Part shown: piece by piece, positions 8,171 to 55,951 of the stretch
Layout of the letters: each line of letters opens with the position of its first letter
How positions within the stretch are numbered: position 1 is the stretch's first letter
From: Salinisphaera sp. LB1
GTDB lineage: Bacteria; Pseudomonadota; Gammaproteobacteria; Nevskiales; Salinisphaeraceae
Assembly (NCBI RefSeq): GCF_003177035.1
Contig: NZ_CP029488.1
Span: forward strand, 3,416,501 to 3,480,500
Length of the DNA stretch: 64,000 bases
Direction of reading: 5' to 3'
Notes under the pieces: generated by a model
Told to the model about the DNA's origin: nothing
The model's database searches: none
Seen by the model: the letters and a program-made list of their open reading frames with translations, nothing else
Translations under genes and position numbers: made by a program

Positions 8171-8178
8171 GCTGCGGA

Positions 8179-9134: not shown

Positions 9135-9803
9135 TCAATGTGCGGTATCGAGCTGATAACCGACGCCATGGACCGTTCGAATCATCTGTTTTGCGGTGGG
9201 ACGTTCGAGCAGCTGGCGCAGGCGATGAATGTGGCCGCGTAGCGCGGCATCGGATTCAGGCGGGTTGTCGTCCCAGATCTGTTTTTCGATCTGGGCACGC
9301 GTGACCACGCCCGGGCAGGCGCGTACCAGGAGTTCGAGGATGCGGAAGCTGATGGGCGCGAGTTCGACCGGGATCTGCCCGCAATAGACGCTGCGTTGTT
9401 CCAGATCCATGTGCAGCTCGCCCGCGGTGAGCTGCGCGAGCCCCTGGCCGCATTCGGTCATGAGGGCCTTGAGTTGCTCGTGCAGCTCGCGGGGTTCGAC
9501 CGAGCGCAACGCAAACGCATGCGGCCCGCATTCCGCGGGATCGCAGGGGCGCAGAGAGCCCGCGGCGAGTGCGAGCACCGGGGTCCGGCGGCCGGCGGCG
9601 TCCGTAAGCTGCCGGCAGAACGCGTCGACGCCGCAGCGCGGCATTTCGCTGTCCAGCACGACGATGTCGTAACGGTTCATCTCGCACAGTCGCAGCGCGA
9701 GCGCTTCGTCGTCGGCGTAGTCCGGCTCGTCGCCGGCGGCTTCGATGGTGTCCCCGATCTGGGTGGCAAGAGGGATATCGTCTTCGATGATCAATACGTG
9801 CAT
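9135..9803 (-). CDS. OmpR-family response regulator with degenerate receiver
   Basis: Transcription factor of about 222 aa with an N-terminal receiver and a C-terminal winged helix. The acidic pair (EDD, D8/D9) and the phospho-acceptor (VVLDSEMP, D51) are present. The conserved Thr/Ser after strand 4 is Ala (LALAAG, about residue 80). The conserved Lys of strand 5 is Arg (FALRSVEP, about residue 100). The C-terminal domain is intact (ISFRILELLVR, then RGHIHRLRQLLE and TVHGVGYQLD). ATG 9803 gives the canonical MHVLIIEDD start. No histidine kinase is adjacent, so it is an orphan. Signalling by phosphorylation may be altered or absent. Confidence 0.87.
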   Translation of the reverse strand: MHVLIIEDDIPLATQIGDTIEAAGDEPDYADDEALALRLCEMNRYDIVVLDSEMPRCGVDAFCRQLTDAAGRRTPVLALAAGSLRPCDPAECGPHAFALRSVEPRELHEQLKALMTECGQGLAQLTAGELHMDLEQRSVYCGQIPVELAPISFRILELLVRACPGVVTRAQIEKQIWDDNPPESDAALRGHIHRLRQLLERPTAKQMIRTVHGVGYQLDTAH

Positions 9804-9895
9804 TGCCGGGTCCCGAGTCTGTTGTCGTCGATTGGCGGGCATACCGCATCCCAGCGCTATGACAATGATTTAGCGGCAAGGTTTACTCAGGGGCG

Positions 9896-9950
9896 AAAAA
9901 AAAGGGCCGTGTCCCGCCGGCCGGGATGCCGGCCCGGCGTGCGGGCTCGG
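9896..9950 (-). terminator. Intrinsic terminator downstream of gph
   Basis: Read on the minus strand, a long GC-rich hairpin (CGCCGGGCCGG / CCGGCCGGCG with one bulge, outer GGGC/GCCC) is followed by eight T residues (complement of A 9896-9903). It sits about 100 bp past the gph stop and just upstream of the response regulator gene, separating the two transcripts. Confidence 0.75.
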
Positions 9951-10050
9951 CAGCGCCATCGCGGTGCCGATGATCAGCGCTCGCCGATTGCCGCTCGGCT
10001 GATGCACGACGCCTAAGGCAGTCGGGCACAAATCATGCGCGCCGCGCCCG

Positions 10051-10749
10051 TCAAGCGGAACGGCGCAGAGCGGCGATCGCGCCTGGCATTTCGTGCCAAT
10101 GGGTCAGTACGCCGTCCGCGCCGAGTTCGGCGACCGGGGCGGACGCGTAGCCGAATGCCGCGAGTAGCACCGGCAGGCCGGCGGCGTGCCCGGCCTCGCG
10201 GTCGACGCCCATGTCGCCGACATACAGGGCGGCGTCGGCATCGCAGGCCAATGCCGCGAGACAGGCCCGCAGCGGCGCCGGATCGGGCTTGAGTGGGTGA
10301 ACGCCGGCCCCGATCACCACATCGATGTAATGATCCAGGCCGAGATGCGCGATCACGTGCTCGGCGATCCGCTGCGGCTTGTTGGTGCAGACCGCGAGCC
10401 GTCTGCCATCGGCCCGCAGACGAGCGAGCGCCAGCACAGCGCCGTCGAAGACGACGCTGTGCTGGCAGGGACGGTCCTGGTAGCAGGCCGTGAAGGCAGC
10501 TGTGAGCGCGTCGATTTCCGTGCGGGTGGCGGCCACGTCGTGCGCGTCGAGGACACGCTCGATGAGTTTTCGGGCGCCGTCGCCGACGAACCGGCGTGCG
10601 GCGGCGGCGTCGATGACAATCCCGTGGTCCGTGAGTGCCGCGTTGACGGCGGCGGCGATGTCCGGCGCACTGTCGATCAGCGTGCCGTCGAGATCGAAGA
10701 TCACGACCTGTGGCCAGCGGGTGTCGGCGTGCGGGATGGATTGGGTCAT
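10051..10749 (-). CDS. gph: Phosphoglycolate phosphatase-type HAD hydrolase
   Basis: HAD-superfamily phosphatase of about 232 aa, most similar to Gph, which dephosphorylates 2-phosphoglycolate. Motif I is VIFDLDGTLIDS near residue 15, motif II AVCTNKP near 115, and motif IV YVGDMGVD near 170 (the usual GDSxxD with Met in place of Ser). The helical cap domain between motifs I and II is of the Gph type. ATG 10749 precedes MTQSIPHADT; a longer open frame continues upstream but is unsupported. It is divergent from the MATE gene (start 10800), so the two share a 50-bp promoter region. Other small HAD phosphatases such as MupP remain possible. Confidence 0.82.
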   Translation of the reverse strand: MTQSIPHADTRWPQVVIFDLDGTLIDSAPDIAAAVNAALTDHGIVIDAAAARRFVGDGARKLIERVLDAHDVAATRTEIDALTAAFTACYQDRPCQHSVVFDGAVLALARLRADGRRLAVCTNKPQRIAEHVIAHLGLDHYIDVVIGAGVHPLKPDPAPLRACLAALACDADAALYVGDMGVDREAGHAAGLPVLLAAFGYASAPVAELGADGVLTHWHEMPGAIAALRRSA

Positions 10750-37341: not shown

Positions 37342-38637
37342 TCAAGTCGCGAACGCATTCGTCAGATGTTGCGCGAGCAGATCGCCGAGCCGGGAATTCC
37401 CGGCCGGTGTTCGACTGGTGCGCTGGACGATGTCGAGGTCGGGCGACTTGTTGCCCTCGATCAGGCACGGTCCATTCTCCAGTATCGCAATATCCCAGCC
37501 AATGGCCACCTGGTCGCCGAATGCGCAGTGCGCGCGTGTGGCCAGGTCGCGCACCGCTTCCCAGTGCGGTAGCCGTCGGCCGAGGATGGGCGCGCCGGTC
37601 GTCGGGTGCGTCGACCACCACCGGCTGTCCGCGCTCAGTCCCAGATCCGTGGCCATGCCCAACGTGCCGGTGGCGAGATCGACGCTGGAGGCGACCCCGC
37701 CCGCATGAAAATTATCCACGACCACATCGCGACTGCTGGCCATGCGGAAAACGGCATGCGTCGCCTCGGGTGTGCCGGTGGCATCGAGACACGTCACCAC
37801 GCGCACCGTCGACAGGGCGCCGGGGGTCAGATCGCTGAGTGTCGGTTCCGCGGTCACGTAGCGGCGCACGAGATAGCGCTCGTCCCGGGACAATTCACAA
37901 AGGTGGGCCTGAAGCACCTCCTTGGTGACGACCTGACCATCACTGGCCCGGTAACGATTGTCACCGATGAAGATCCAGCGCGATGCCCCGCGCCCGCCCG
38001 CACCCTTGATGGGTTTGAAGAACAAATCGGCATCGGGCAACGCGTCGATACCCTCGATCACGCCGTCGCGCGCTGTGGCCAGGGTATCGACGACCGGCAG
38101 GCCATGCTCGCGACAGCGAATACCGAACAATGCCTTGTCGCGCAAGCCCTCAGTACTCTCGTGGCAACCGCGCTGGCGCCGCAGCATGTCGTAGATACCG
38201 CTTTTTGTTTCGCTCCGATACAGATACTCGGCGGCACGCTGATAATGGGTCGGCCGATAAAGTTCGAAGATGTAATACCAGGGTGGCGGTACCGCCAGGC
38301 GTACGCCCAGCGTGACTTGCTCAACCCACTGCCGCGGTCGGCTCTTGCCGGTATCGATGCGAACGCGGGCGCCGCAGCGCGAGGTGTAGACGGTAGCAGC
38401 CACCATAAGTGTCGGCAGCATGAATACGGCGCCGGCCACGAGCACCGCGCCTCCCGCGATGCCGTCTTCGCGCCAGCATTGCTGGGAAAACATACGATGA
38501 ATGGTGGTGGCGGGCGTGCCGTCATCGGCCAGCATCGACCAAATCAACGGGGCGCCGCTCAACGCCTTGACCAGCGTATTCGGCTTCATGGCCTTGGCCA
38601 TACGCAGCCAGCGGCTCTGATAATCGGTCGATCGCAT
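37342..38637 (-). CDS. Sugar-transfer-associated ATP-grasp protein
   Basis: About 431 aa. The second half matches the ATPgrasp_ST pattern (PF14397): LFFKPIKGAGGRGASRW for ATP binding, GALSTVRVVTCLDATG, FRMASSRDVVVDNFHAGG, and the metal-binding end IGWDIAILENGPCLIEGN. The N-terminal half has a hydrophobic segment (GAVLVAGAVFMLPTLMVAAT, about residues 60-80) and an interior with YLYRSETKSGIYDML. Such proteins occur in exopolysaccharide and lipopolysaccharide loci and are thought to join sugars and amino acids, but direct function is unproven. ATG 38637 is used. It precedes kdoO on the same strand. Confidence 0.85.
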   Translation of the reverse strand: MRSTDYQSRWLRMAKAMKPNTLVKALSGAPLIWSMLADDGTPATTIHRMFSQQCWREDGIAGGAVLVAGAVFMLPTLMVAATVYTSRCGARVRIDTGKSRPRQWVEQVTLGVRLAVPPPWYYIFELYRPTHYQRAAEYLYRSETKSGIYDMLRRQRGCHESTEGLRDKALFGIRCREHGLPVVDTLATARDGVIEGIDALPDADLFFKPIKGAGGRGASRWIFIGDNRYRASDGQVVTKEVLQAHLCELSRDERYLVRRYVTAEPTLSDLTPGALSTVRVVTCLDATGTPEATHAVFRMASSRDVVVDNFHAGGVASSVDLATGTLGMATDLGLSADSRWWSTHPTTGAPILGRRLPHWEAVRDLATRAHCAFGDQVAIGWDIAILENGPCLIEGNKSPDLDIVQRTSRTPAGNSRLGDLLAQHLTNAFAT

Positions 38638-38847
38638 CGCCTGGCCCTTTGAAATATCTCGCAGTCGGAATCCAGCGCAGCGGGGCAGCCGTGTCGTTCG
38701 ACACGCGAACCCGTGCACCGCCAAATCGGCAGCCGCCGATTGTGTGATACGCCGCGTTTACAAATCGTTCGCTACACCGCGTGCGGCGAACCGCTACCGG
38801 CCGGGAAGGGCGTGTTCGATGGATTCAATCCGGGCCGCGATGGCCTG

Positions 38848-43498: not shown

Positions 43499-44565
43499 GA
43501 TTGGCGCTGTTGCGACAACGGGCATTGTGGCAGTTGGATTGGCAAACCGGGATACACACAATGGGTCCGATCCGTAATTTAACATAATATACATTATGCA
43601 CAGTAGTATGTGTCTTAACCGGCCCGCCTCGGCGATCGCCCGACTCTGCCACGACCGGATCCATGCATCACATGACTCGATGTGTTCGCGCCGACGCTCT
43701 GTCGCCGTATCCGGCCCGCTTGGCTTCGCCGGCCCCGCGCGGAACTACCGGGCTGGAGCCGCGGCATACTTGTCTTCCGCAGCGTCACGCTGTCGGCGAT
43801 ATCGTGCGGCTCGAACCCGAATCGGCTCCAAGGATTCCGACGGACTTTTCGGCCGTCATCGGTTCGACTCGTTTATGCTGGCGCCCCATGCGAGCGTCCG
43901 GCCGCGCCAGCGTTATCGATCGAGGTTTACCGACTCCGGAGATGACGTAAGGCCGGCATTCCTGGACTGATGCGCCGGTCGAGCCCGGTGTATCGGGCCC
44001 CGGTCGCGCGATTCGCAGCGGCGTTTTGGCGGCTCGCCGCGGTCGACCGATCCGCCAGCATCGCGTGCGGGCTGACGAGTTGCGCGATAATCGGCGCGGT
44101 GACGGCGCATGCGCATTCGGCTCGGCGGTCGCATCGCCACCAGGTTCGGGACATGACCCGCGAATGTGCAACCCGCGCCCGTTCCCGTTTCGCGCTGAGA
44201 GTATTGGTCGGTATTACGAATAACCCACGCCGCACTCTGTTACCGTGCGCCGCCGAGGCACGGCTCGGACTGCGCATTGGCCTCGCCAATGGCGCTTCGT
44301 GCGAAGCGGAACCGATGCTGCGCCGCCCGAGTCTTTCGAGAGCCCCTAGCGGCGGTACGCGATGTTATCCCGGGGGCGTAAAACAAGTTTGCAGCGGCCG
44401 GGTTCGTCCATGCCCTCGCGCGGCCTCATAAGGCTATTGGCGTATTCATGAACGCTTGGGTCGTGCTAAAGATAAATAGGGGCGCTTGCTTGGTTGGTTA
44501 CGGGTAATGGCCTTTGTCGACATCGGCGGATTGCCGGCGCGACGTCTAACACCGAGGGTAGAACC
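43499..44565. other. One-kilobase stretch without a recognised gene
   Basis: The region between the CDF gene and putA. An AT-rich inverted repeat (CATAAT-ATAC-ATTATG) lies at 43583-43598. Several open frames on both strands are present but their peptides are Arg/Pro/Ser-rich, lack ribosome sites and resemble no family, so I regard them as noise. The region probably contains the putA promoter within its last 150 bp. Confidence 0.5.
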
Positions 44566-47500
44566 ATGAGACCGTCACAGTCAGAGACGCCCGAACTCGT
44601 CGATAGCCGGCAAGCGATACGCGACTACTACCTCGCGGACGAACACACGGTGATTCACAAGATGATTGCGGGGGCTCAGTTGACGCCGGCCGAGCGTGAG
44701 GCCATTTCGGCCCGTGCGGCGGATCTGGTGCGCGGTGTCCGCAAGAACGCGCAGCCCACCATCATGGAGAAGTTCCTGGCGGAGTATGGGCTGACCACCA
44801 AGGAAGGCGTCGCGTTGATGTGTCTCGCCGAGGCGCTGCTGCGGGTGCCGGACAACACCACCATCAACGACCTGATCGAGGACAAGATCAGCTCCGGCGC
44901 CTGGGGCACGCACCGCGGCAAGGCGTCGTCTTCGCTGATCAATACCGCGACCGTTGCGTTGCTGATGACCAGCAATCTGCTCAAGGACGCCGAACACAAC
45001 AGCGTGGGAGATACGCTTCGCAGGCTGGTCAAGCGCTTCGGCGAGCCGGTGATCCGCACCGTCGCGGGCCAGGCGATGAAAGAGATGGGGCGCCAGTTCG
45101 TCCTGGGCCGGAATATCGACGAGGCACAGCGCGAAGCGAAGGAGTACATGGCCAAGGGCTACACCTACTCCTACGACATGCTGGGCGAAGCGGCGCGCAC
45201 CGACGACGACGCCAAACACTATTTCGAGTCCTATTCCAACGCGATCGACAGCATTGCAAAAGCCTGTAAAGGCGATGTGCGCAAGAATCCGGGCATTTCG
45301 GTCAAGCTGTCCGCCCTGCTCGCCCGCTACGAATACGGCAACAAAGAACGGGTGATGAACGAGCTTCTGCCCCGCGCCCGCGAGCTGGTAAAAAAAGCGG
45401 CGGCGGTCAATATGGGATTCAACATCGACGCCGAGGAACAAGACCGGCTCGACCTGTCTCTCGATGTGATCGAAGCCATCGTGTCGGATCCTGAACTGAA
45501 CGGTTGGGACGGCTTCGGCGTCGTGGTTCAGGCCTATGGCAAGCGTTCCGCCTTCGTCCTCGACTGGCTTTACGCCCTGGCGAAAAAATACGATCGGCGC
45601 TTCATGGTGCGTCTGGTCAAGGGGGCTTACTGGGATGCGGAAATCAAGCGCGCCCAGACCATGGGGCTGAACGGTTTTCCGGTATTCACCCGCAAGGCCT
45701 GCAGTGATGTGTCGTTCCTGTCGTGCGCGACCAAGCTGCTGAACATGACCGACCGCATCTATCCCCAGTTCGCCACCCACAATGCCCATTCGGTGTCCTC
45801 GATTCTTGAGTTGGCCAAGCGCAAGGGCGTGGATAACTACGAGTTCCAACGCCTGCATGGCATGGGCGAATCCCTGCACGACGAGGTGTTGAAAGTCAGT
45901 GGCGTACCTTGTCGTATTTATGCACCGGTCGGCCCGCACAAGCATCTGCTGGCATACCTGGTACGCCGCCTGCTGGAAAACGGGGCCAACAGCTCATTCG
46001 TCAACCAGATTGTCGATAAAAGCATTACGCCGGAAGAGATCGCCAAGGATCCGGTCGATGCCGTCAAGGCGATGGGAAACAACATTTCCAGCAAGGCGAT
46101 TGTTCACCCGTTCAAGCTGTTCGGGGCCCAGCGCCGCAATTCCAAGGGTTGGGATATCACCGACCCGGTTACGGTTAAAGAGATCGATGCCGGGCGCGAT
46201 GCCTATCGCGACCACCGCTGGCGCGGCGGCCCAGTCATTGCCGGTGAGGTATCGGGAACCGAGGTCCAGACCGTGCGCAACCCGGCGAATCCCGAAGACA
46301 CGGTGGGCCATGTCACGCAGGCCTCCGAGGCCGACGTAAACACCGCGATTGCCGCGGCCCAGAAAGGTTTCAAAGCCTGGTCTGCACGCCCCGCCGAGGA
46401 GCGGGCGCAGTGCCTGCGCAAAGTCGCGGACCTGTACGAGGCCAACGCCCACGAGCTGTTCGCGCTGGCGACCCGGGAGGCCGGCAAATCCCTGCTGGAC
46501 GGCATTGCCGAGATCCGCGAGGCCGTGGATTTCGCCCTGTACTATGCCAATGAAGGCGTGCGCTACCGGGACAGCGGTCACGCGCGCGGCGTCATGGTGT
46601 GTATTTCCCCATGGAACTTCCCGCTGGCCATCTTCACCGGCCAGATCATGGCCAATCTGGTGGCCGGGAACGCGGTTCTGGCCAAGCCGGCCGAACAGAC
46701 CTCGCTACTGGCCGCGCGCGCCGTGGCGTTGATGCACGAGGCCGGAATTCCCGAAGACGTGATTCAACTGCTGCCGGGCAGCGGTGCCACCGTGGGTGGG
46801 GCGCTGACATCCGACGCCCGCGTCTCCGGGGTCTGCTTCACGGGATCGACGGCAACGGCGCAGCGAATCAACAAGGTGATGGCGGAAAACCTGGCGCCGG
46901 ACGCCCCGCTGGTGGCGGAAACCGGCGGGCTGAACGCCATGATTGTCGATTCGACCGCCCTCCCCGAACAGGTCGTGCGCGATGTGCTGGCCTCCTCCTT
47001 CCAGAGCGCGGGGCAGCGTTGTTCCGCGCTTCGTATGCTGTATGTGCAGAAAGACATTGCGGATAACCTGCTGGAAATGCTCTACGGCGCGATGGATGAG
47101 CTGGGTATCGGCGATCCCTGGCTGCTGTCGACCGATGTCGGCCCGGTGATCGACGAAGCCGCGCGCAAGAAAATCGCCGATCACTGCGCCAACTTCGAGG
47201 CCAAGGGCCGGTTGCTCAAGAAAGTACCGGCCCCCGGAAACGGGACGTTTGTGTCGCCGGCCGTAATCAAGGTCAGCGGCATCGAGGAACTCGAAGAGGA
47301 AGTGTTCGGGCCGGTACTGCATGTGGCCACGTTTGCCGCCAAGGATATCGATAAGGTCGTGGATGCGGTCAATGCGAAGGGCTATGGCCTGACGTTCGGC
47401 ATCCATACGCGCGTGGACCGCCGTGTCGAGCGCATTTCAAGTCGCATCAAGGTGGGCAACGTCTACGTCAACCGCAATCAGATCGGGGCGATCGTCGGCT

Positions 47501-48195
47501 CCCAGCCGTTCGGCGGCGAAGGCCTGTCGGGCACCGGGCCGAAAGCGGGCGGGCCACAATACGTCCGCCGCTTCATGCAGGGCGAGACGATCGAGGTAGC
47601 CGCCGATTCCGGCGGCAAAAAGATCGAGGCAAAGGAACTGCAAGGCCTGGTCGACAAGCTTGATTCGCTCACGGCGCCCAACCCGGGGGCGCGTATCGAG
47701 GCATTGACGCCGATCTTTGGCCATGTGCCGGCGCCGCTGGATGCCCAGGATGAACAAATGCCCGGGCCGACCGGTGAACTCAACCGTCTGTCGCATCACG
47801 CCCGCGGCGTTGTGTTGTGTCTTGGCCCGGATCGGAACACCGCACTCGAACAGGCGGCGACGGCATTGTCACAGGGCAATAAGGTGGCCGTGATCGCCCC
47901 GGGCGTGGACGAACAGGTTGGCAAGGCTGCTAAAGCGGGCCTGCCGATCGTCGGCATGGCCGGACAGCTGGCGCCGGAGGCGCTGGTCGACGCGCAGGGT
48001 TTTCAGGCGGTCGTGAGCTGCGCCCAGAGTCCGGTGCTGCGCGAATACCGCGTCGCGCTCGCCAGGCGCGATGGCGCATTGCTGCCGTTGATCACGGAAC
48101 ATATCCTGGATCAGCGGTTCGTCATCGAGCGTCATTTATGTGTGGACACGACGGCCGCCGGCGGTAACGCCAGTCTGATTGCCGCGTCCGAATAA
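44566..48195 (+). CDS. putA: Bifunctional proline dehydrogenase / P5C dehydrogenase, PutA without RHH domain
   Basis: Two-step proline oxidation to glutamate by one polypeptide of about 1209 aa. ATG 44566 follows a GAGGG ribosome site. The PRODH barrel shows RLVKGAYWDAEIKRAQ and YPQFATHNAHSVSSI. The P5CDH half has SPWNFPLAIFTGQ, ETGGLNAM (general base) and SAGQRCSALRM with the catalytic Cys. A C-terminal domain of about 180 aa resembles the type-B tail. The N-terminal ribbon-helix-helix of the E. coli enzyme is missing, so this PutA is unlikely to repress its own gene. Confidence 0.95.
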   Translation: MRPSQSETPELVDSRQAIRDYYLADEHTVIHKMIAGAQLTPAEREAISARAADLVRGVRKNAQPTIMEKFLAEYGLTTKEGVALMCLAEALLRVPDNTTINDLIEDKISSGAWGTHRGKASSSLINTATVALLMTSNLLKDAEHNSVGDTLRRLVKRFGEPVIRTVAGQAMKEMGRQFVLGRNIDEAQREAKEYMAKGYTYSYDMLGEAARTDDDAKHYFESYSNAIDSIAKACKGDVRKNPGISVKLSALLARYEYGNKERVMNELLPRARELVKKAAAVNMGFNIDAEEQDRLDLSLDVIEAIVSDPELNGWDGFGVVVQAYGKRSAFVLDWLYALAKKYDRRFMVRLVKGAYWDAEIKRAQTMGLNGFPVFTRKACSDVSFLSCATKLLNMTDRIYPQFATHNAHSVSSILELAKRKGVDNYEFQRLHGMGESLHDEVLKVSGVPCRIYAPVGPHKHLLAYLVRRLLENGANSSFVNQIVDKSITPEEIAKDPVDAVKAMGNNISSKAIVHPFKLFGAQRRNSKGWDITDPVTVKEIDAGRDAYRDHRWRGGPVIAGEVSGTEVQTVRNPANPEDTVGHVTQASEADVNTAIAAAQKGFKAWSARPAEERAQCLRKVADLYEANAHELFALATREAGKSLLDGIAEIREAVDFALYYANEGVRYRDSGHARGVMVCISPWNFPLAIFTGQIMANLVAGNAVLAKPAEQTSLLAARAVALMHEAGIPEDVIQLLPGSGATVGGALTSDARVSGVCFTGSTATAQRINKVMAENLAPDAPLVAETGGLNAMIVDSTALPEQVVRDVLASSFQSAGQRCSALRMLYVQKDIADNLLEMLYGAMDELGIGDPWLLSTDVGPVIDEAARKKIADHCANFEAKGRLLKKVPAPGNGTFVSPAVIKVSGIEELEEEVFGPVLHVATFAAKDIDKVVDAVNAKGYGLTFGIHTRVDRRVERISSRIKVGNVYVNRNQIGAIVGSQPFGGEGLSGTGPKAGGPQYVRRFMQGETIEVAADSGGKKIEAKELQGLVDKLDSLTAPNPGARIEALTPIFGHVPAPLDAQDEQMPGPTGELNRLSHHARGVVLCLGPDRNTALEQAATALSQGNKVAVIAPGVDEQVGKAAKAGLPIVGMAGQLAPEALVDAQGFQAVVSCAQSPVLREYRVALARRDGALLPLITEHILDQRFVIERHLCVDTTAAGGNASLIAASE

Positions 48196-48387
48196 GGACA
48201 GGACGGTGTCAGCCGACACGCATACCAGCCACGCCATTCCGGGCACGCAGTTCCGGATCGATCGGCCGGTTTCCACGTCTACCGTGGGCGTTCGGCTTGT
48301 TGCCGTCGCCCAGGTCAATTTACGGAACTCAAGGGTGCGCGCCCGTCCGGTCTGCCGGAACCACTGCGAATCAAATACGGTAGCGTC

Positions 48388-51171
48388 ATGACAATAAAGA
48401 CTCGAACCGAAGCGCCGCACACCGCGCTGGGCTTTTATCACAAGATTTCGCATCTGCGTTCCGATACCTGGAACGCGTTGACGCACGATCTGGCCGATGT
48501 CTTGCGCTCGGACAAGCCGCGTCAGACGCGCAGGCTGGTCAAGGCGATCGGCATCAAGCTGACGCGGCTCGAGATCATCGAGGATTATCACGCCTTTCCT
48601 TCCAGCGAAGACTTTCGCCATCTGTGGTCGCTTTTCAACGAGCGGCAATACGCCCAGCTCGACAAGGTGGTCAACCGTCTTGTGCGCGCACTGGTCAGCG
48701 AGTCGTATCGGCGCCGGCCGATCGACCTGAGCGATACCGACGCCGAGGATATCGAGAACCACGACGCCCTGGCCCGTTTCCGGCGCGGCCACCCCGGGTT
48801 CAACTCATCGGCCCAGCCCTACTTCGAAGTGCTGCTTGTCGACAATCTGTCGGCCGATGAGGACGAGGTGGTGCGGGACGCCTTCTACCGCATGCGCCGT
48901 GAGGAAGATCGGTTTGTCTATGACGTGGTCACGGTACGCAGCTTCGAGGATGCGCTGATCGCCGTATTGATCAACCCCAATATTCAGGCGTGCCTGATCC
49001 GCTACGAGTTTCCCTACAAGTCGAAATACAACCTCAGCGCCATTCGGCGGACGCTGGAAGGCCTGTCGGAAATGGATCTGGAAAACCAGCCGGCCTCCGA
49101 GCGCAGCATCCAACTGGGCGCCATGATCCACCAGCTGCGTCCGGAAATCGATCAGTTCCTGGTGACCAATGGCGAAGTGGAGTCCACTGCCAGCCGCGAT
49201 ATCGATTACTTCACCCGTATCTTCTATCGCGAAACCGACTACATCGAGCAGCACCACACCATCCTGCGGGCGATCGACAACCGCTATCGCACGCCGTTCT
49301 TCGATGCCCTGCGGGAATACAGCCGCAAGCCCACCGGCGTTTTTCATGCCATGCCCATCTCGCGAGGCAAGTCGATCACCCGGTCCCACTGGGCCGGTCA
49401 GATGATCGACTTCTACGGCATCAACATCTTTCTGGCGGAAACATCGGCCACCTCGGGCGGGCTCGACTCCCTGCTGCAACCCTACGGGCCCATCAAGCGG
49501 GCACAGGAATACGCCGCACGCGCCTTCGGCGCGCGCGAGAGCTTCTTCGTCACCAACGGCACCTCCACGGCAAACAAGATCGTGGTGCAGGCGCTGGTCA
49601 AGCCCGGCGATGTCGTACTGGTGGACCGTGATTGCCACAAGTCGCATCACTATGGCCTGGTGCTGACCGGCGCCTACGCGAGCTATCTGGATTCCTATCC
49701 GCTCGACGATTACTCGATGTACGGTGCGGTCCCGCTGAAGACGATCAAGAAGACGCTGCTGGAATACAAGCGCGCAGGTCGGCTCGACCAGGTCAAGATG
49801 CTGCTGCTGACCAACTGCACCTTCGATGGCATCGTCTACGACACGCGACGCGTGATGGAAGAGTGTCTGGCCATCAAGCCCGACCTCATGTTCCTCTGGG
49901 ACGAGGCGTGGTTTGCCTTTGCCACGTTCAACCCGACCTATCGCCCCCGCACGGCCATGAACGCCGCCGACACCCTGCGCGATCGTTATCGCAGCACCGC
50001 CTATCGCCGAGAATATGCCGCGTGGAAAGCACGCTTCGACGCGCTCGACCCGGATGATGACGCAACCTGGCTCGATCAACGTTTGCGACCGGATCCGGAT
50101 CAGGTGCGCATTCGGGTCTATGCAACCCACTCCACCCACAAGACGCTGACCTCACTGCGTCAGGGTTCGATGATCCATATCTACGATCAGGACTTTCGCC
50201 AGAAGGTGGAATCCACCTTCCACGAAGCCTACATGACGCATACGTCGACCTCGCCGAACTACCAGATTCTGGCGTCGCTCGACGTGGGACGCATGCAGGC
50301 CGAGATGGAAGGCTTCGAACTGGTCAATTCGCAGATCGAAACGGCACTGTCGCTACGCGAGCAGTTATACAACCATCCCCTGCTCAAGAAGTATTTCCAG
50401 GTCCTCAAGAACGGCGACATGATTCCGGCCGAATATCGCCAGTCGGGCGTGCACACCTTCTACGATCATCATCGGGGCTGGCATCAGATGGAGGAGGCCT
50501 GGGCGCAGGACGAGTTCGTCGTCGACCCGACCCGGGTGACCATCGCGATCGGCAATACCGGGGTTGACGGCGACCAGTTCCGGACCGATTACCTGATGAA
50601 CCAGTTCGGCATCCAGATCAACAAGACCTCGCGCAATACCGTGCTGTTCATGACCAACATCGGGACTTCGCGCAGCTCGATCGCCTACCTGATCGATGTC
50701 CTCATCCGGCTGGCCAAGGATTTCGAGCGCCGCTGGGAAGACAGTGGCCGCAGCGAACGCAAGGTTATCGAGCACCGGATCCACTCATTGACCCGCGAAC
50801 TGCCCCCGTTGCCCGATTTCAGTCGCTTTCACGACGCGTTCCGCCCCTGGCCGGACAGCGCGACGCCCGAGGGCGACATCCGGCGCGCCTATTTTCTGAG
50901 CTATGACGACGACAATACCGATTATCTACGCTTCGACAATGGCGCCCTGCAGCGCGATTTGCAGGCAGGCCGAGAAGTCGTTTCGGCCAGTTTTGTCATT
51001 CCCTATCCGCCGGGTTTTCCGGTACTCGTCCCGGGCCAGGTAATCAGCCAGGAAATCATCGATTTCCTGACCGCGCTGGATGTCAAGGAAGTGCACGGCT
51101 ACCGGCCCGAGCTGGGCCTGCTGATCTTCAACGAGCAGGCGCTCGCGCGCGCCGCGGAGCATCCAGCATGA
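48388..51171 (+). CDS. Large PLP-dependent Orn/Lys/Arg-family decarboxylase
   Basis: About 927 aa, some 180-210 residues longer than the usual 715-750 aa inducible decarboxylases. The first 330 residues hold an unusual, acidic N-terminal region containing a wing-like part (YFEVLLVDNLSADEDEVV). The PLP domain starts near 345 (SHWAGQMIDFYGINIFLAET). The FVTNGTSTANKIV and DRDCHKSHHYGL motifs are present. The PLP lysine is K585 in THSTHKTLTSLRQGS. It ends with the typical C-terminal domain (GFPVLVPGQVIS). Substrate (lysine, ornithine or arginine) is not resolved. First gene in a row of four co-directional genes. Confidence 0.9.
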   Translation: MTIKTRTEAPHTALGFYHKISHLRSDTWNALTHDLADVLRSDKPRQTRRLVKAIGIKLTRLEIIEDYHAFPSSEDFRHLWSLFNERQYAQLDKVVNRLVRALVSESYRRRPIDLSDTDAEDIENHDALARFRRGHPGFNSSAQPYFEVLLVDNLSADEDEVVRDAFYRMRREEDRFVYDVVTVRSFEDALIAVLINPNIQACLIRYEFPYKSKYNLSAIRRTLEGLSEMDLENQPASERSIQLGAMIHQLRPEIDQFLVTNGEVESTASRDIDYFTRIFYRETDYIEQHHTILRAIDNRYRTPFFDALREYSRKPTGVFHAMPISRGKSITRSHWAGQMIDFYGINIFLAETSATSGGLDSLLQPYGPIKRAQEYAARAFGARESFFVTNGTSTANKIVVQALVKPGDVVLVDRDCHKSHHYGLVLTGAYASYLDSYPLDDYSMYGAVPLKTIKKTLLEYKRAGRLDQVKMLLLTNCTFDGIVYDTRRVMEECLAIKPDLMFLWDEAWFAFATFNPTYRPRTAMNAADTLRDRYRSTAYRREYAAWKARFDALDPDDDATWLDQRLRPDPDQVRIRVYATHSTHKTLTSLRQGSMIHIYDQDFRQKVESTFHEAYMTHTSTSPNYQILASLDVGRMQAEMEGFELVNSQIETALSLREQLYNHPLLKKYFQVLKNGDMIPAEYRQSGVHTFYDHHRGWHQMEEAWAQDEFVVDPTRVTIAIGNTGVDGDQFRTDYLMNQFGIQINKTSRNTVLFMTNIGTSRSSIAYLIDVLIRLAKDFERRWEDSGRSERKVIEHRIHSLTRELPPLPDFSRFHDAFRPWPDSATPEGDIRRAYFLSYDDDNTDYLRFDNGALQRDLQAGREVVSASFVIPYPPGFPVLVPGQVISQEIIDFLTALDVKEVHGYRPELGLLIFNEQALARAAEHPA

Positions 51172-51426
51172 GAGAAGACGACAGACGACCCGCTGTCGAG
51201 GCGCGCCGGCATCAGGTTGCGCCGTGACAGGCGCGCGGCACTCGGCTTGCTTGTCCGGCACAACTATTTTCGCCGCCCCGGGGGCGGCGTGTCGGGCGAT
51301 GTTTGCAGCACTTGGAGCCCTCGGCACGCGAGGCGGTCGCGTGATTGAGGCGCCGATTCGGGACGTGACCCACACTCTTGGTTTACCCTTCAGATTATCA
51401 ACCGAACTTTTTAAAAGAAGAGGCAT

Positions 51427-52377
51427 ATGACGCCATTCGCCATTGCAGGCATTCAGATGTACGTCTCGGCAACGCAGAGCAACGTCGAGGGCATGAAAAA
51501 TCGCATCGACGCGCTCATGGCGGTTTATCCGTGGGTGCAGATGGTGACGTTCAGCGAGCTTGCCGCCTGCGGCCCGCTGCCGTCGAAAGCGCAGGCCCTG
51601 CCCGGCTCGGCGGAAACCGCGCTGGCCGAAGCCGCCGCCAAGCACCAGATCTGGCTGGTGACCGGCTCGATGTTCGAACGGGCCGACGACGGCCTCATCT
51701 ACAACACGGCGTCAGTCATCGACCCGACCGGCAATGTCGTCGGTCGCTATCGAAAGATGTTCGTGTTCGAGCCCTACGAACAGGGCATCACGCCGGGCAA
51801 CGAGTTCTTCGTATTCGACGTGCCCGAGGTGGGCCGCTTCGGCATGACGATCTGCTATGACACCTGGTTTCCGGAAGTCACTCGGACACTGGTCAGCATG
51901 GGGGCCGAGGTAATTCTACGCCCGACGCTGACCTCATCCATCGACCGCGATGTAGAGCTTTCGATCACGCGTGCCAACGCCGCAGTCAATCAGTGTTACC
52001 TGTTCGATATCAACGGTCTCGGCGCCGGTGGCTATGGACGCTCCATCGTATGCAGCCCGCACGGCCAGGTGCTTCATCAAGCCGGCAGCAGTGAGGAATT
52101 CATCCCGCTGGAAATCGACTTCGATACCGTACGCCGATCGCGCGAACGAGGTTTGCTGAGCCTTGGGCAACCCTTGAAGAGTTTCCGCGACAAACCGGTC
52201 GAATTCGCGATTTATCAGGCGGGCGCGCAATCGCCCTATCTTGACTCACTGGGGCCACTGAAAAAGCCTGAGCGCATATGTATAAATGCCGGTTCAGAAG
52301 CATCCGATGGCGCGTCATCAGGCGCCTATTCCAGCGTCGTATCCGATACCGATACGCCGCCAAACGACAATCCATAA
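51427..52377 (+). CDS. Carbon-nitrogen hydrolase (nitrilase superfamily)
   Basis: Cytoplasmic amidase or nitrilase-type enzyme of 316 aa. The catalytic triad is clear: E44 (TFSELAACG), K110 (GRYRKMFVFE) and C143 (MTICYDTWFPE). Sequence beyond it (GAEVILRPTLTSSIDRD, then RANAAVNQCYLFDINGLG) fits amidases acting on small amides more than true nitrilases. Ribosome site AGAAGAGG precedes ATG 51427. The tail after residue 280 is Ser/Ala/Asp-rich. In the neighbourhood of an amine-forming decarboxylase it might hydrolyse an N-carbamoyl or amide derivative; that is an inference. Confidence 0.9.
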   Translation: MTPFAIAGIQMYVSATQSNVEGMKNRIDALMAVYPWVQMVTFSELAACGPLPSKAQALPGSAETALAEAAAKHQIWLVTGSMFERADDGLIYNTASVIDPTGNVVGRYRKMFVFEPYEQGITPGNEFFVFDVPEVGRFGMTICYDTWFPEVTRTLVSMGAEVILRPTLTSSIDRDVELSITRANAAVNQCYLFDINGLGAGGYGRSIVCSPHGQVLHQAGSSEEFIPLEIDFDTVRRSRERGLLSLGQPLKSFRDKPVEFAIYQAGAQSPYLDSLGPLKKPERICINAGSEASDGASSGAYSSVVSDTDTPPNDNP

Positions 52378-52391
52378 CCAGGGAGACAGCC

Positions 52392-53894
52392 ATGGAGAAT
52401 CAGAACACCGCGCCCGTCCAGTCGACTCGGACGCTCCACGGCCTGTCCGATATCCGGCGGTTCTTCCGGCGCAACGACACGCCGATCTATTTCATCAGCG
52501 CGACGAACTTCAACCTGCTGGGCGCGGATGAATGGGTGCATCACTTCAAGTACATCAATTACATCGATTGCTTCGACGGCCAGCACCCGAATCTGTTCGT
52601 GCCGCCGGAAATCGCGCATACCGAATTCCAGAGCATCGAGGACATCAACAACTATCTGCTCGAACACAAGGCCGTGGCCGATTACGTCCGCAGTCGCGGG
52701 CCCGGAAAGGCGCTGTTCCTGATGTTCGACGAAAACACCGAGAGACTCGCCCGCGAACTGGATCTGGAAGTCTGCCTGCCGCCGGCCAGTCTGCGCCAGC
52801 ATCTGGACGACAAGCTGGTGACCACACGAATTGCCGAAGCTGCAGGTATCGACTGCGTTCCCAACGTGATGGCCGCCGTGAGCTCCTATGAAGACCTGCG
52901 TCGGCTTGCCGCGGACCTGGGGCCGGATCTCGTGGTGCAGACTGCATTCGGCGACTCGGGTCACACCACTTTCATGATCTCCGATGAGGAAGACTGGGCC
53001 GAGCATGCCGACGAGATCGTCGGCGCCGGCGACGTCAAGATCATGAAACGCATCAAGCCCCGCGGCACCGCCGTCGAGGCCTGTGTCACGCGGCACGGCA
53101 CGATCGTGGCCCCGATCATGACCGAGCTGGTCGGCTTTCCCGAGCTCACGCCCTATGAAGGGGGCTGGTGCGGTAACGAGATATTTGCCAACGCCTTCAA
53201 TGCGGATCTGCGTGATCAGGCGCGCGACGCCACCCTGGCGATGGGCGAATGCCTCAGGCGCGAGGGCTATCTCGGCTATTTCGAGCTGGACTTCCTGATC
53301 GATCGCGATACCGACAAGCTCTATCTCGGCGAGATGAACCCGCGCATCACGGGTGCCAGCTCCATTACCAACCACGCCGCATTTTCGTTGTCGGACATGC
53401 CGTTGTTCATGTTTCATCTGCTGGAGTGGATGGACGTGGATTACACACTCGACGTCGATGAAATCAATCGGCGCTGGGCCGAGCCGGACAACATCGACTC
53501 CTGGGGCCAATTGGTGCTCAAGCACACGGCGGATGCGGTCGGCGTCATCACCCAGGCACCGCCGACCGGCATCTGGCGCATGGATGCAGACGGCCAAATC
53601 AGCTTCTCACGCTATGACACCCATCGTTACCATGTGGAAAGCGAGGCCGAGGCCTTGTTCGTGCGCATCGCCGGTGTCGGCGACTACTGGTACGAAGGCG
53701 CGGATCTGGGCATACTGGTCACACGTGGACGTCTGATGAATGACGATTTCGAGCTCAACCGGCGCGCACGTGCCTGGATTGACGGGATCAAGTCGCATTT
53801 CCAGGCCTCGGCTGCCAGCGCCGAGAACCAGGGGCACCTCGCGCCGAGTGCCTTGAAAGCTCATCCGGTACCGGGCTCTTTCAAGCTGTTGTAG
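52392..53894 (+). CDS. ATP-grasp ligase (biotin-carboxylase-like)
   Basis: Protein of about 500 aa with an ATP-grasp fold. ATG 52392 has GGGAGA upstream and lies 14 bp after the nitrilase stop. ATP-binding features are DDKLVTTRIAEAAGI (lid helix), VVQTAFGDSGHTTFMIS, and GYFELDFLIDRDTDKLYLGE followed by MNPRITGASS, which carries the metal ligands. It lacks the biotin-carboxylase core lengths and the carboxyltransferase partner, so it more likely ligates a carboxylate to an amine. The last 40 residues are Ala/Ser/Pro-rich. Third gene of the four-gene row. Confidence 0.82.
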   Translation: MENQNTAPVQSTRTLHGLSDIRRFFRRNDTPIYFISATNFNLLGADEWVHHFKYINYIDCFDGQHPNLFVPPEIAHTEFQSIEDINNYLLEHKAVADYVRSRGPGKALFLMFDENTERLARELDLEVCLPPASLRQHLDDKLVTTRIAEAAGIDCVPNVMAAVSSYEDLRRLAADLGPDLVVQTAFGDSGHTTFMISDEEDWAEHADEIVGAGDVKIMKRIKPRGTAVEACVTRHGTIVAPIMTELVGFPELTPYEGGWCGNEIFANAFNADLRDQARDATLAMGECLRREGYLGYFELDFLIDRDTDKLYLGEMNPRITGASSITNHAAFSLSDMPLFMFHLLEWMDVDYTLDVDEINRRWAEPDNIDSWGQLVLKHTADAVGVITQAPPTGIWRMDADGQISFSRYDTHRYHVESEAEALFVRIAGVGDYWYEGADLGILVTRGRLMNDDFELNRRARAWIDGIKSHFQASAASAENQGHLAPSALKAHPVPGSFKLL

Positions 53895-53934
53895 AGGCGC
53901 CTGCCCTGCCCGGCGACGGGGCGCGAACCGGGTG

Positions 53935-53978
53935 AAAAAAGACGCGACGGGCTTATCCGATCGACCGGGCCCGTCGCG
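53935..53978 (-). terminator. Terminator-like hairpin oriented on the minus strand
   Basis: Stem CGCGACGGGC / GCCCGTCGCG (53943-53952 with 53969-53978) with a 16-nt loop. On the minus strand it is followed by TCTTTTTT (complement of six A at 53935-53940). No minus-strand gene ends here; it lies between two plus-strand genes. Confidence 0.6.
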
Positions 53979-54122
53979 CCAATGCATTGCTTCGCCCCGA
54001 ACGCCCCACCGAGAGTCGGCCACGTTATGCCAGGACGAGGCATCACGTGCCGGCGTGGCGCGTCTTCCCCCATTCACCACGGCCGATGCAACCCGTGGCA
54101 GGTCCGAACAGAGGTTACCGGG

Positions 54123-55166
54123 ATGAGCACGCCGACTTCGCCCATGGCGCATACACCGAGCACGTTTCGCCTGGCCTCGATCGAGGAAGACGAACCGGGC
54201 GCCAAGTGGCAGGCCCTTTTCGACGCGCATTGGCCGCCGTATCAGACGTGGTTTCTTTCCGAAGGCGAACGCGCGCGTCCGGGCTATATGACGTCGTTGC
54301 GAAACCTCCGCGCGTATATGCCGGAGCTGTTGTCGACCTACGACAAACTGGTCGATCTCGCCGGCGGCGGCGATCTCGCCGCGCGTTTTCTGAGCTTCTA
54401 CCGCCCGCCGCCCTATCTGCTGGGGTGCTCGCAGGCGGTATGGGCCGGGCCCGAGCCGGCGCTGATTCGCAATTACGACTACAGCCCCATTCTGTTTGAA
54501 TGGGCCCTGCTGAAAACCCGCTGGCTGCGCCCGGTCATCGCCATCAGCGATTGTCTCTGGGGCGTGCTGGACGGAATCAACGATGCCGGGCTCGCGGTCT
54601 CGCTCGCATTCGGCGGGCGCAAGACCACGGGCGACGGTTTCGGCGTGCCGCTGGTGCTGCGCTACATACTGGAAACATGCGACAACGTCCGTGAGGCCTG
54701 TTTCGTGTTGCGGCGTGTGCCCGTCCACATGACATACAACCTGACACTGCTGGATCGCGCCGGCGTATTCGTCACCGCGTATCTGGCCCCCGACCGCAAA
54801 CCACGCTTCGTGCGGTCGCCGGTCAGCACCAACCACCAGGATCGTATCGAGTGGCCGGCCTACGCACGCATGAGCGCGAGCATCGAGCGCCGCGCCTTTC
54901 TCGAAGACCGCCTGGCCGATCCGAGCGAAACCAAAAGCCGATTCGTGAACCGCTTCCTGGAACCCCCGATTCATCGCATCCGCTACGAGCGGGCCTTCGG
55001 CACACTCTACACCGCAGTCTATCGTCCGACCGAAGCACGCGTGGAATACCACTGGCCCGGCCACCGGGTGCTGCAACAGTCGTTCGCATCGTTCGAGGAA
55101 GGACTCGAAACCATCCATCTGGGCGAGGCGACCGACGGGAAAGTGAGTGCCGGACATTCATCGTGA
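54123..55166 (+). CDS. C45-family autoproteolytic acyltransferase/amidohydrolase
   Basis: Ntn-hydrolase of about 347 aa related to isopenicillin-N acyltransferase. The putative nucleophile is C102 in YLLGCSQAVWAG; self-cleavage before this Cys would release an N-terminal propeptide of 101 residues. Following features are LIRNYDYSPILFEWA (conserved RNxD), then ISDCLWGVLDGINDAGLAVS and PVSTNHQDRIEWP. Relatives hydrolyse or form amide bonds between amino acids and amines (for example N-beta-alanyl-dopamine hydrolase Tan). Last of the four-gene row; convergent with the CBS gene. Propeptide length is longer than I would expect, so the start could be later. Confidence 0.85.
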   Translation: MSTPTSPMAHTPSTFRLASIEEDEPGAKWQALFDAHWPPYQTWFLSEGERARPGYMTSLRNLRAYMPELLSTYDKLVDLAGGGDLAARFLSFYRPPPYLLGCSQAVWAGPEPALIRNYDYSPILFEWALLKTRWLRPVIAISDCLWGVLDGINDAGLAVSLAFGGRKTTGDGFGVPLVLRYILETCDNVREACFVLRRVPVHMTYNLTLLDRAGVFVTAYLAPDRKPRFVRSPVSTNHQDRIEWPAYARMSASIERRAFLEDRLADPSETKSRFVNRFLEPPIHRIRYERAFGTLYTAVYRPTEARVEYHWPGHRVLQQSFASFEEGLETIHLGEATDGKVSAGHSS

Positions 55167-55417
55167 GTTTCCGTCGCGCTGTTCGCTGACGCCCGGCGAC
55201 GAATTGTCCGTGGAACGCCGGGGCGGCGCATACGGGGTACGGCGCGCTAAAACTGGCCATCCCCTCCTTTAGCGTGGCCCGCGCGGGCAAGCTGGCCATC
55301 GAGAATCAGCGAATCTGCGGCGGTTGCACAAAGACCGGGCGCCCGGGTCTGTCGGTGGACGCCCGGTAAAACCAACCGTCCGACCGCATGACCCTCGTCC
55401 GCTTCCGAGCTCGCACG

Positions 55418-55951
55418 CTAACGGCGGGCGCGTGTCTCCTGCCAGATTTCGTTGCCGACCAGGGTACGCATTCGATCCATTGATTCGGCAAACCACTCGA
55501 GAATGTCGTCCAGCGTAATGATACCGCGGAGATAGAACTCGGCGTCCACGACCGGCAGTCGCCGCACCCCCAGTTCAGCCATGCACTCCATCGCTTCCCA
55601 GATGTCGGCCGATTCATCGATGGTTTCGATGGGCGTCTGAACGATATCGCCAACCGCCAGCGAATCGATCGGTACGTCCTGAGCCAGCACTTCGATCACC
55701 AGATCCCGATCGGTCACGACGCCCACCAGCGCCGACTCCTTCTCGTCGGATTCGACGATGACCAGTGAGCCGACGTGGTATTTGCGCATCAGCGCCGCAG
55801 CATCACGGATGCGCGTATGCCTGGGTGTGGTGACGACATCCTTTTCGCAGAACCGCGCGACTTCCACCTGAGACTCCGGGTAGGCGTGAACGAGGCGACC
55901 ATCGTCATCGATCGCGGCGGCGGTATCTTGATTCAGGTCAAAGCGCCGCAC
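55418..55951 (-). CDS. Two-CBS-domain protein
   Basis: Cytoplasmic protein of 177 aa containing a tandem CBS pair. The first has AALMRKYHVGSLVIVESDEK and VGVVTDRDLVIEVLA, the second AMECMAELGVRRLPVVDAEF and GIITLDDILEWFAESM. CBS pairs bind adenine nucleotides (AMP, ATP, NAD). No catalytic domain is attached, so it probably regulates a partner. It is the most distal gene of the minus-strand block that starts at fadE and converges with the C45 gene. Confidence 0.92.
   Translation of the reverse strand: MRRFDLNQDTAAAIDDDGRLVHAYPESQVEVARFCEKDVVTTPRHTRIRDAAALMRKYHVGSLVIVESDEKESALVGVVTDRDLVIEVLAQDVPIDSLAVGDIVQTPIETIDESADIWEAMECMAELGVRRLPVVDAEFYLRGIITLDDILEWFAESMDRMRTLVGNEIWQETRARR

What the first reader, a model, noticed from the sequence alone, without database searches (positions are those of the whole stretch)
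48388..55166. Four-enzyme cluster that looks like an amine-conjugate pathway
Four co-directional genes encode a large PLP amino-acid decarboxylase (K585), a nitrilase-family amidase (E44/K110/C143), an ATP-grasp ligase, and a C45 Ntn-hydrolase (C102). Family knowledge: decarboxylases give amines, ATP-grasp enzymes such as carnosine synthase join amino acids to amines, and C45 relatives such as Tan hydrolyse aminoacyl-amines. Inference: together they could make and recycle an amino-acyl polyamine or similar metabolite. I know of no named pathway with exactly this set.
Basis: partly seen in the sequence, partly recalled or inferred. Interest (0 to 1): 0.7.

Follow-up and report, generated by a model that had tools for sequence, protein, structure and literature searches.

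The report
Conserved GABA-linked amide-cycling gene cluster
Four neighbouring enzyme genes form a block that recurs in distantly related bacteria, apparently feeding and cycling a small amino acid such as GABA through amide conjugates; I found no name for it in print, and its decarboxylase looks as if it has switched from basic to acidic amino acids.

Summary
The four genes are real, correctly placed, and strongly conserved as a block. Of 53 ATP-grasp loci with enough flanking sequence, 51 carry the decarboxylase, 50 the nitrilase-type amidase, 48 the C45 hydrolase and 45 all three. In 369 genomes of the class the genes co-occur with Fisher p from 5e-9 to 1e-18. Forty of the 53 also carry a GABA-transaminase-like and/or aldehyde dehydrogenase gene, against 0 of 20 control windows.

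The amino-acyl-polyamine reading needs changing. The decarboxylase family has Asn where lysine decarboxylase has the Glu526 proposed to bind lysine (81 of 81 residues read) and an Arg six residues after the PLP lysine (82 of 82); 14 of 14 canonical enzymes have Glu and Ser there. Relatives without the block sit beside AspT-type antiporters in 10 of 12 loci opened. I infer an acidic substrate: glutamate to GABA, or aspartate to beta-alanine. The ATP-grasp enzyme and the Tan-family C45 hydrolase would make and break an amide of the product. Block conservation is shown; the chemistry is inferred. Rv2531c of tuberculosis, of unknown activity, shares the signature.

The parts
48388..51171 (+). DEC: PLP-dependent OKR-fold decarboxylase, 927 aa; PLP lysine K585; family-specific R591, N745, Q884
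51427..52377 (+). NIT: carbon-nitrogen hydrolase, amidase-like; E44/K110/C143 (and E118 in 65 of 67)
52392..53894 (+). GRASP: stand-alone ATP-grasp protein of NCBIfam NF005096 (named 'biotin carboxylase' there), read here as a ligase
54123..55166 (+). C45: C45-family Ntn hydrolase/acyltransferase; nucleophile Cys102 (Cys149 if the ORF start 53982 is used)
44494..48195 (+). PutA (proline dehydrogenase/aldehyde dehydrogenase), 193 bases upstream; near the block in three genera, so possibly linked through glutamate

Best explanation
A horizontally mobile metabolic cassette that feeds and cycles a small omega-amino acid, most likely GABA. Proposed order: (1) DEC removes the alpha-carboxylate of an acidic amino acid: glutamate to GABA (aspartate to beta-alanine is the close alternative). 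(2) GRASP uses ATP to join the product to a partner X as an amide. (3) C45, of the family of insect Tan (recalled), hydrolyses that amide and returns the free amino acid. (4) NIT releases ammonia from a primary amide in the same pathway. (5) A transaminase and an aldehyde dehydrogenase resembling GabT and GabD, often encoded alongside in relatives, carry surplus GABA to succinate. Shown: the block, its co-occurrence, its neighbours and the residue switches. Inferred: DEC's acidic substrate. Guessed: the partner X, and the exact steps of NIT, GRASP and C45. By analogy it works like the insect Black-Ebony-Tan cycle (decarboxylase, ligase, C45 hydrolase; recalled), without sharing its ligase.
For: Block conserved: DEC 51, NIT 50, C45 48, all three 45 of 53 loci. 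Whole-genome co-occurrence in 369 genomes: GRASP-C45 10 of 10, GRASP-DEC 9 of 10, GRASP-NIT 7 of 10. GABA link: a class III transaminase (AMT) and/or aldehyde dehydrogenase (ALDH) in 40 of 53 loci, 0 of 20 control windows. Five AMTs scanned score 481-543 bits against the GABA-transaminase cut-off of 506.65, one above it. Four of five ALDHs scanned have a succinate-semialdehyde dehydrogenase model as best hit, none over a cut-off. Glutamate link: PutA in three genera, glutamate dehydrogenase at five rhizobial loci, glutamate-synthase-like genes at three roseobacterial loci. DEC residues: S to R591, Glu526 to N745, E to Q884; Glu526 is a proposed lysine-binding residue (PMC5607190, one passage read). 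AspT-type antiporters directly beside block-less DECs in 10 of 12 loci. Loci L034, L039 and L045 have NIT, GRASP and C45 without DEC nearby, but with an arginine-to-GABA gene set.
Against: No enzyme of the block has been assayed, and no structure was predicted. The host's best GABA-transaminase match scores only 357.7 of 506.65 bits, and no AMT lies beside this copy; 13 of the 53 loci, among them L040 of the same genus, have neither AMT nor ALDH at the threshold used. The host has two PF00282 proteins, a family that includes ordinary glutamate decarboxylases (recalled). AspT might serve the aspartate 4-decarboxylase that is also present in three of the AspT loci (L232, L234, L240); the antiporter of L165 scores 378.7 of 546.95 bits with the AspT model. 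Aspartate, not glutamate, is suggested by the ectoine-degradation genes around the block in L099, L173 and L174. Five of 53 loci lack C45, three lack NIT and two lack DEC. The role of NIT is not explained by the cycle. Arg591, Asn745 and Gln884 could also suit a neutral side chain (glutamine, citrulline, gamma-glutamyl amides).
Confidence: 0.4

Rival explanations
1. A non-homologous version of the Puu (gamma-glutamylputrescine) pathway: DEC makes a diamine from ornithine or arginine, GRASP acylates it, the neighbouring transaminase and aldehyde dehydrogenase oxidise the free end, and C45 releases GABA. This is closest to the first reader's idea.
For: GABA-transaminase-like and SSADH-like neighbours. 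A PuuR-like regulator at nine loci (the L043 copy scores 169 of 211 bits). Ureohydrolases at six loci. Ligase and hydrolase in one block.
Against: DEC lost the proposed substrate-binding glutamate in 81 of 81 residues read and has an Arg in 82 of 82. The host has two canonical OKR decarboxylases elsewhere. AspT linkage of block-less DECs. NIT has no obvious step.
Confidence: 0.15
2. GRASP acts first: it makes a gamma-glutamyl (or beta-aspartyl) amide of X; DEC decarboxylates this neutral-tailed conjugate to GABA-X; C45 frees GABA and X. This would resemble the BtrJ/BtrK steps of butirosin synthesis (recalled).
For: Loss of two acids and presence of Asn and Gln in DEC suits an amide side chain. 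GRASP directly follows DEC in the commonest gene order.
Against: DEC homologues occur without GRASP nearby in the AspT loci, and without GRASP anywhere at the thresholds used in G052. GRASP, C45 and NIT occur in Thiofilum (G342) without DEC.
Confidence: 0.15
3. DEC and NIT form a pair that acts on an amino acid with a carboxamide or ureido tail (glutamine to 4-aminobutanamide to GABA, or citrulline to N-carbamoylputrescine to putrescine); GRASP and C45 do a separate job.
For: NIT lies directly upstream of DEC in many loci. NIT's nearest solved relatives are Nit2-type and aliphatic amidases. G303, which has no NIT at 1e-50, has an amidase-signature gene near the block, and two rhizobial loci have an annotated amidase.
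Against: NIT is kept where DEC is missing: contiguous with GRASP and C45 in L045, about 7 kb away in L034; NIT-GRASP-C45 is also contiguous in L099, L107, L173, L174 and L176. R591 is not explained.
Confidence: 0.12
4. GRASP is a biotin-type or nitrogen carboxylase, as its NCBI name says, and the block is not about amide conjugates.
For: NF005096 'biotin carboxylase' cut-off met, 746.9 against 684 bits; nearest solved relatives by sequence are biotin carboxylase domains.
Against: At the QVEH site of the aligned pyruvate carboxylase the family has T-G-A-S (position 319: A in 53 and V in 1 of 54). The best match to a solved carboxylase is only 36 bits.
Confidence: 0.06

Closest known systems
GABA shunt (glutamate decarboxylase, GABA transaminase, succinate-semialdehyde dehydrogenase)
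   Same: Frequent neighbours in relatives resemble GabT and GabD, and DEC is inferred to supply GABA.
   Different: DEC is of the OKR family, not PF00282 like GadB (recalled); NIT, GRASP and C45 are not part of the GABA shunt.
Insect Black-Ebony-Tan beta-alanine conjugate cycle (recalled)
   Same: An acidic amino acid decarboxylase (inferred here), an ATP-dependent ligase, and a C45 hydrolase.
   Different: The ligase is ATP-grasp, not NRPS-like Ebony; the decarboxylase is of the OKR family; an extra CN hydrolase; bacterial; substrates unproven.
Puu gamma-glutamylputrescine pathway (recalled)
   Same: Ligase and amide hydrolase around GABA formation; PuuR-like regulator at nine loci; transaminase and aldehyde dehydrogenase neighbours.
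   Different: The ligase is ATP-grasp rather than glutamine-synthetase-like, the hydrolase is C45 rather than C26, and a decarboxylase and a CN hydrolase belong to the block.
Rv2531c of Mycobacterium tuberculosis (PDB 9n0n, 9n0o, 9n0p)
   Same: Same full-length family as DEC (836 bits over residues 13-922) with the same R, N and Q residues in the alignment.
   Different: Its activity was not clarified (PMC12910592, passages read); the genes around it were not examined here.
Canonical OKR decarboxylases AdiA, LdcI, ODC
   Same: PLP site: H417, D505, W508, H584, K585 all conserved.
   Different: Glu526 to Asn, Ser to Arg591, Glu to Gln884; 109-219 bits with six NCBIfam models whose cut-offs are 794-1310.

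Membership tests
OKR decarboxylase superfamily (PF01276) | Pfam model over the curated cut-off, with PLP-site residues | tested here: met
   266 against 27 bits; H417, D505, W508, H584, K585 in 82 of 82 and in 14 of 14 canonical enzymes
Canonical Arg/Lys/Orn decarboxylase | Glutamate proposed to bind the substrate (LdcI Glu526; PMC5607190, one passage read) | tested here: not met
   Asn745 in 81 of 81 residues read (one gap), against Glu in 14 of 14 canonical enzymes
Canonical Arg/Lys/Orn decarboxylase | NCBIfam family cut-off | tested here: not met
   109-219 bits with six models whose cut-offs are 794-1310
Acidic amino acid decarboxylase (function) | Activity on glutamate or aspartate | not testable with these tools
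   Only residues and gene context
CN hydrolase / nitrilase superfamily | Glu-Lys-Cys catalytic residues | tested here: met
   E44, K110, C143 in 67 of 67; PF00795 125 bits
Biotin carboxylase | Catalytic Glu of the QVEH motif (E. coli Glu296, recalled) | tested here: not met
   Alignment puts TGAS there; A in 53 and V in 1 of 54
Biotin carboxylase | Biotin carboxyl carrier partner | not tested
   No search for it was made
NF005096 (PRK06524) family | Curated model cut-off | tested here: met
   746.9 against 684 bits
C45 Ntn hydrolases (NF040521) | Model cut-off and nucleophile Cys after a small residue | tested here: met
   158 against 85 bits; Cys in 87 of 87, preceded by G 71, A 10, S 6
C45 Ntn hydrolases (NF040521) | Autoproteolytic activation | not testable with these tools
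   Needs protein
Puu pathway | Glutamine-synthetase-like PuuA and class I amidotransferase-like PuuD (recalled) as the block's ligase and hydrolase | tested here: not met
   The ligase is ATP-grasp and the hydrolase C45; PuuA and PuuD elsewhere in the genome were not tested
GABA shunt | GABA transaminase and SSADH | tested here: inconclusive
   Alongside in many relatives; in the host itself the best matches are under the cut-offs, 357.7 of 506.65 and 582.2 of 646.35 bits

The most novel reading that the evidence does not exclude
DEC and Rv2531c belong to a previously unrecognised family of OKR-fold decarboxylases that switched from basic to acidic amino acids, and DEC with GRASP, C45 and NIT forms a widespread bacterial cycle that makes and breaks GABA (or beta-alanine) amides: a bacterial counterpart of the insect Black-Ebony-Tan cycle, serving storage, signalling or catabolism of an unknown conjugate.
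Probability: 0.27. Interest if true: 0.82.

Novelty: new variant of a known kind. Interest (0 to 1): 0.62.

Why it matters
A four-enzyme block kept together in bacteria of several phyla points to a metabolite or pathway that none of my literature searches turned up. The decarboxylase analysis gives a concrete, testable substrate class to a family whose solved member, Rv2531c, has no known activity (PMC12910592, passages read). It also suggests that the public label 'biotin carboxylase' (NF005096) is wrong for a widespread ligase family. The block lies beside nifHDKE on a rhizobial plasmid and inside ectoine-degradation clusters of Halomonadaceae-type genomes, so the answer bears on symbiosis and salt-stress metabolism.

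Tried and rejected
Polyamine or arginine catabolism as the main reading: first favoured because of agmatinase-like, PuuR-like and 5-guanidino-2-oxopentanoate decarboxylase neighbours. Lowered after the residue comparison and the AspT contexts.

GRASP as carboxylase: lowered.

Ectoine degradation as the general role: doeA and doeB homologues lie beside only three of the loci searched (L099, L173, L174), and H. elongata has doeX and doeC adjacent with no block (PMC3187862, passages read).

A telling hydrolase in place of C45: I read the neighbours of nine loci (eight without C45 nearby, and L050), in an output that was cut in the middle, and recognised none. Consensus promoters: none found in 47900-55700, while shuffles give a mean of 2.3, so the operon structure of this copy is not settled.

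Literature. Searches returned no paper for the gene combinations tried. One search gave one (PMC12910592, read by passages). One search gave four and ten (listings only). One search listed 12 of 21 (PMC3187862 read by passages). One search listed 12 of 66 (one passage of PMC5607190 read). One search gave four on Rv2531c, of which only PMC12910592 was read, by passages. PMC12329521 (structure of Rv2531c) is not held. The library holds no bioRxiv and few subscription papers, so the block may be described elsewhere.

Structure prediction of GRASP never ran, so no fold search was made.
Full report
WHAT IS THERE. The four genes are present as described: an OKR-type PLP decarboxylase (DEC, 48388-51171), a carbon-nitrogen hydrolase (NIT, 51427-52377), an ATP-grasp protein (GRASP, likely 52392-53894) and a C45 Ntn hydrolase (C45, likely 54123-55166). 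The genome is Salinisphaera-like: the nearest named relative is S. hydrothermalis (L040), whose proteins are 90 (DEC), 86 (NIT), 90 (GRASP) and 75% (C45) identical. Only 3 of 14 genomes of the genus, this one included, carry GRASP above its cut-off, so the block is patchy. Its G+C is 59-60% for DEC and NIT, 61% for GRASP and 63% for C45, against 64% for the window.

CONSERVATION. By record titles they come from Gamma- and Alphaproteobacteria, Trueperaceae, Planctomycetota, Bacteroidota, Gemmatimonadetes, Myxococcales, Calditrichaeota and others. I counted neighbours by tblastn. Of 53 loci with at least 7 kb upstream and 2 kb downstream of GRASP, 51 have DEC, 50 NIT, 48 C45, and 45 all three. 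Of all 80, many on short contigs, the figures are 76, 59 and 70, and 52 for all three. The commonest order is NIT-DEC-GRASP-C45, often with gaps under 100 bases; this window has DEC first. In 369 genomes of the class, drawn without regard to the block, GRASP occurs in 10, DEC in 10, C45 in 11 and NIT in 9. GRASP and C45 share 10 genomes, GRASP and DEC 9, GRASP and NIT 7. Exceptions: G342 has no DEC; G271, G288 and G303 have no NIT at 1e-50; G340 has C45 and NIT, on different contigs, without GRASP; G052 has DEC only; G057 has NIT only. Fisher p values run from 5e-9 (DEC-NIT) to 1e-18 (GRASP-C45), and from 1e-7 to 3e-17 without the window's own genome. Genomes share ancestry, so these values overstate independence.

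NEIGHBOURS. All-against-all comparison of neighbouring ORFs showed two further recurring families: a class III transaminase (AMT) and an aldehyde dehydrogenase (ALDH). One or both occur in 40 of the 53 loci (37 and 29). In 20 control windows of 20 kb from nine genomes of the same phylum none of the searched families was found, with two positive controls ringing. Five AMTs scanned score 481-543 bits with the GABA-transaminase model (cut-off 506.65; one above). Four of five ALDHs scanned have an SSADH model as best hit, the fifth lactaldehyde dehydrogenase, none over a cut-off. Also seen: a PuuR-like regulator at nine loci, PutA in three genera (this window and L040, L103, L167), ureohydrolases at six loci, TAXI and TRAP transporter genes at eight and seven; glutamate dehydrogenase at five rhizobial loci and a glutamate-synthase-like gene at three roseobacterial loci. 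In Shinella, Roseateles and Thiofilum (L034, L039, L045) NIT, GRASP and C45 lie with an arginine-to-GABA set. In the Thiofilum copy the 5-guanidino-2-oxopentanoate decarboxylase scores 770 against a cut-off of 500 and the D-amino-acid dehydrogenase 447 against 383; an ornithine-racemase-like protein scores 400 against 480, and an agmatinase-like ureohydrolase and an aldehyde dehydrogenase are present. Thiofilum (G342) has no DEC at 1e-100, only a canonical OKR decarboxylase; Roseateles XES5 has a DEC elsewhere on the same plasmid. So a GABA-forming route can stand in for DEC beside NIT, GRASP and C45.

THE DECARBOXYLASE. The alignment with solved enzymes shows Asn745 where LdcI and AdiA have the Glu of VEKTG, which is Glu526 of LdcI by the printed coordinates; Gln884 where they have the Glu of MPGE; and Arg591 where they have the Ser of SQAS, six residues after the PLP lysine. 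For comparison I took canonical enzymes found by PF01276 in 35 chosen genomes: 14 of the 15 canonical loci fetched were aligned, leaving out the split L209, and the 15 DEC-family matches were set aside. Among 82 family members R591 is found in 82 of 82 (canonical Ser 14 of 14), N745 in 81 of 81 residues read (Glu 14 of 14) and Q884 in 80 of 80 read (Glu 13 of 14, Gln 1). Nineteen columns switch in all, and most do not change charge. A published docking study names Lys367, Val524 and Glu526 as probable lysine-binding residues (PMC5607190, one passage read). That these residues face the substrate in DEC was not checked on a structure. The host encodes two canonical OKR decarboxylases elsewhere and two PF00282 proteins, so it may have an ordinary glutamate decarboxylase as well.

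DEC WITHOUT THE BLOCK. In the plasmid collection 38 records hold DEC relatives. I opened eleven of them: ten that were not among the 20 GRASP records listed (of 32), and Roseateles XES5, whose GRASP lies far away. With the G052 locus L165 that makes twelve. Ten of twelve have one or two AspT-type antiporter genes directly beside DEC; L231 and L236 do not. Six of the ten are annotated aspT in their records (L232-L235, L237, L240); L165, L238, L239 and L241 were found by tblastn or the AspT model, and the L165 protein scores 378.7 of 546.95 bits. None of the twelve has GRASP, NIT or C45 in the stretch. The ten form one clade (support 1.0) and all carry R591, N745 and Q884. Five are Ensifer and two Rhizobium strains, one each Phyllobacterium, Rhodobacter and G052, so they are not ten independent cases. 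Three also carry an aspartate 4-decarboxylase gene (L232, L234, L240), so AspT could serve that enzyme there; the gene tables of L233, L235 and L237 show AspT without one, but these tables are incomplete. Antiporter-decarboxylase pairs usually share a substrate (established knowledge), which points to an acidic amino acid.

THE LIGASE AND HYDROLASES. GRASP matches biotin carboxylases only distantly (best 36 bits) and has TGAS instead of QVEH. I read it as a carboxylate-amine ligase; this is inference. C45 matches NF040521 over its cut-off, and a small residue precedes the Cys in all 87 sequences aligned. NIT's nearest solved relatives are Nit2-type and aliphatic amidases. G303, without NIT, has an amidase-signature gene near the block, and two rhizobial loci have an annotated amidase, which suggests that an amidase step is needed.

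MODEL AND LIMITS. The model of the best explanation joins these facts, but only the genes, their linkage and the residue switches are shown. Glutamate against aspartate is open. Aspartate is favoured by ectoine genes around the block in L099, L173 and L174 and by AspT; glutamate by GABA-transaminase-like, PutA and glutamate dehydrogenase neighbours. In the host itself the best GABA-transaminase match is weak (357.7 bits). The role of NIT and the partner X are unknown.

HISTORY. DEC of this genome is 77-80% identical to the DECs of L099, L107, L173, L174 and L176 (Halomonas-like, and G464), while NIT, GRASP and C45 are 53-61%; window, L040, L099, L107 and L173 form one DEC clade with support 1.0. 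DEC was therefore probably exchanged separately, which fits the different gene orders.

Noticed in passing
L099, L173, L174: In three Halomonadaceae-type loci NIT-GRASP-C45-DEC lies between doeA, doeB and an Lrp-type regulator gene on one side and doeC-like and doeD-like genes on the other; in H. elongata doeX and doeC are adjacent (PMC3187862, passages read).
   Followed up: partly
L129 (R. leguminosarum Vaf10 plasmid) 1-10440: DEC starts about 1 kb from nifH of a nifHDKE cluster, followed by GRASP, C45, a peptide-type ABC transporter, an amidase and a MurR/RpiR regulator; in L036 and L127 the block lies near a Nif11-type RiPP cluster.
   Followed up: no
L045:19287-21152, L034:13782-15566: A protein with an ornithine-racemase-like half and a C-terminal half that in L034 weakly matches arginase (44.7 bits); by eye the L045 copy lacks the usual metal-binding motifs.
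   Followed up: no
L164:7367-8224 (G057): A lone NIT homologue (53% identical) between TonB-receptor-like genes, near a MocR-type regulator and a cyanophycinase-like protein (read by eye).
   Followed up: no
window 37342-38724, minus strand: A second, unrelated ATP-grasp protein (PF14397) beside a Kdo hydroxylase gene (PF11004).
   Followed up: no
Bacteroidota loci such as L048, L072, L082, L095: A small protein of 132-186 aa (VOC-like by eye) is found at 14 loci, between NIT and DEC in 12 of them; NCBIfam gave no match for the L048 copy.
   Followed up: no
L101, L112, L113, L117, L119, L171, L175: TAXI-type and fused TRAP transporter genes next to the block, 61-78% identical to the reference copies: a candidate importer of the pathway's substrate.
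   Followed up: partly
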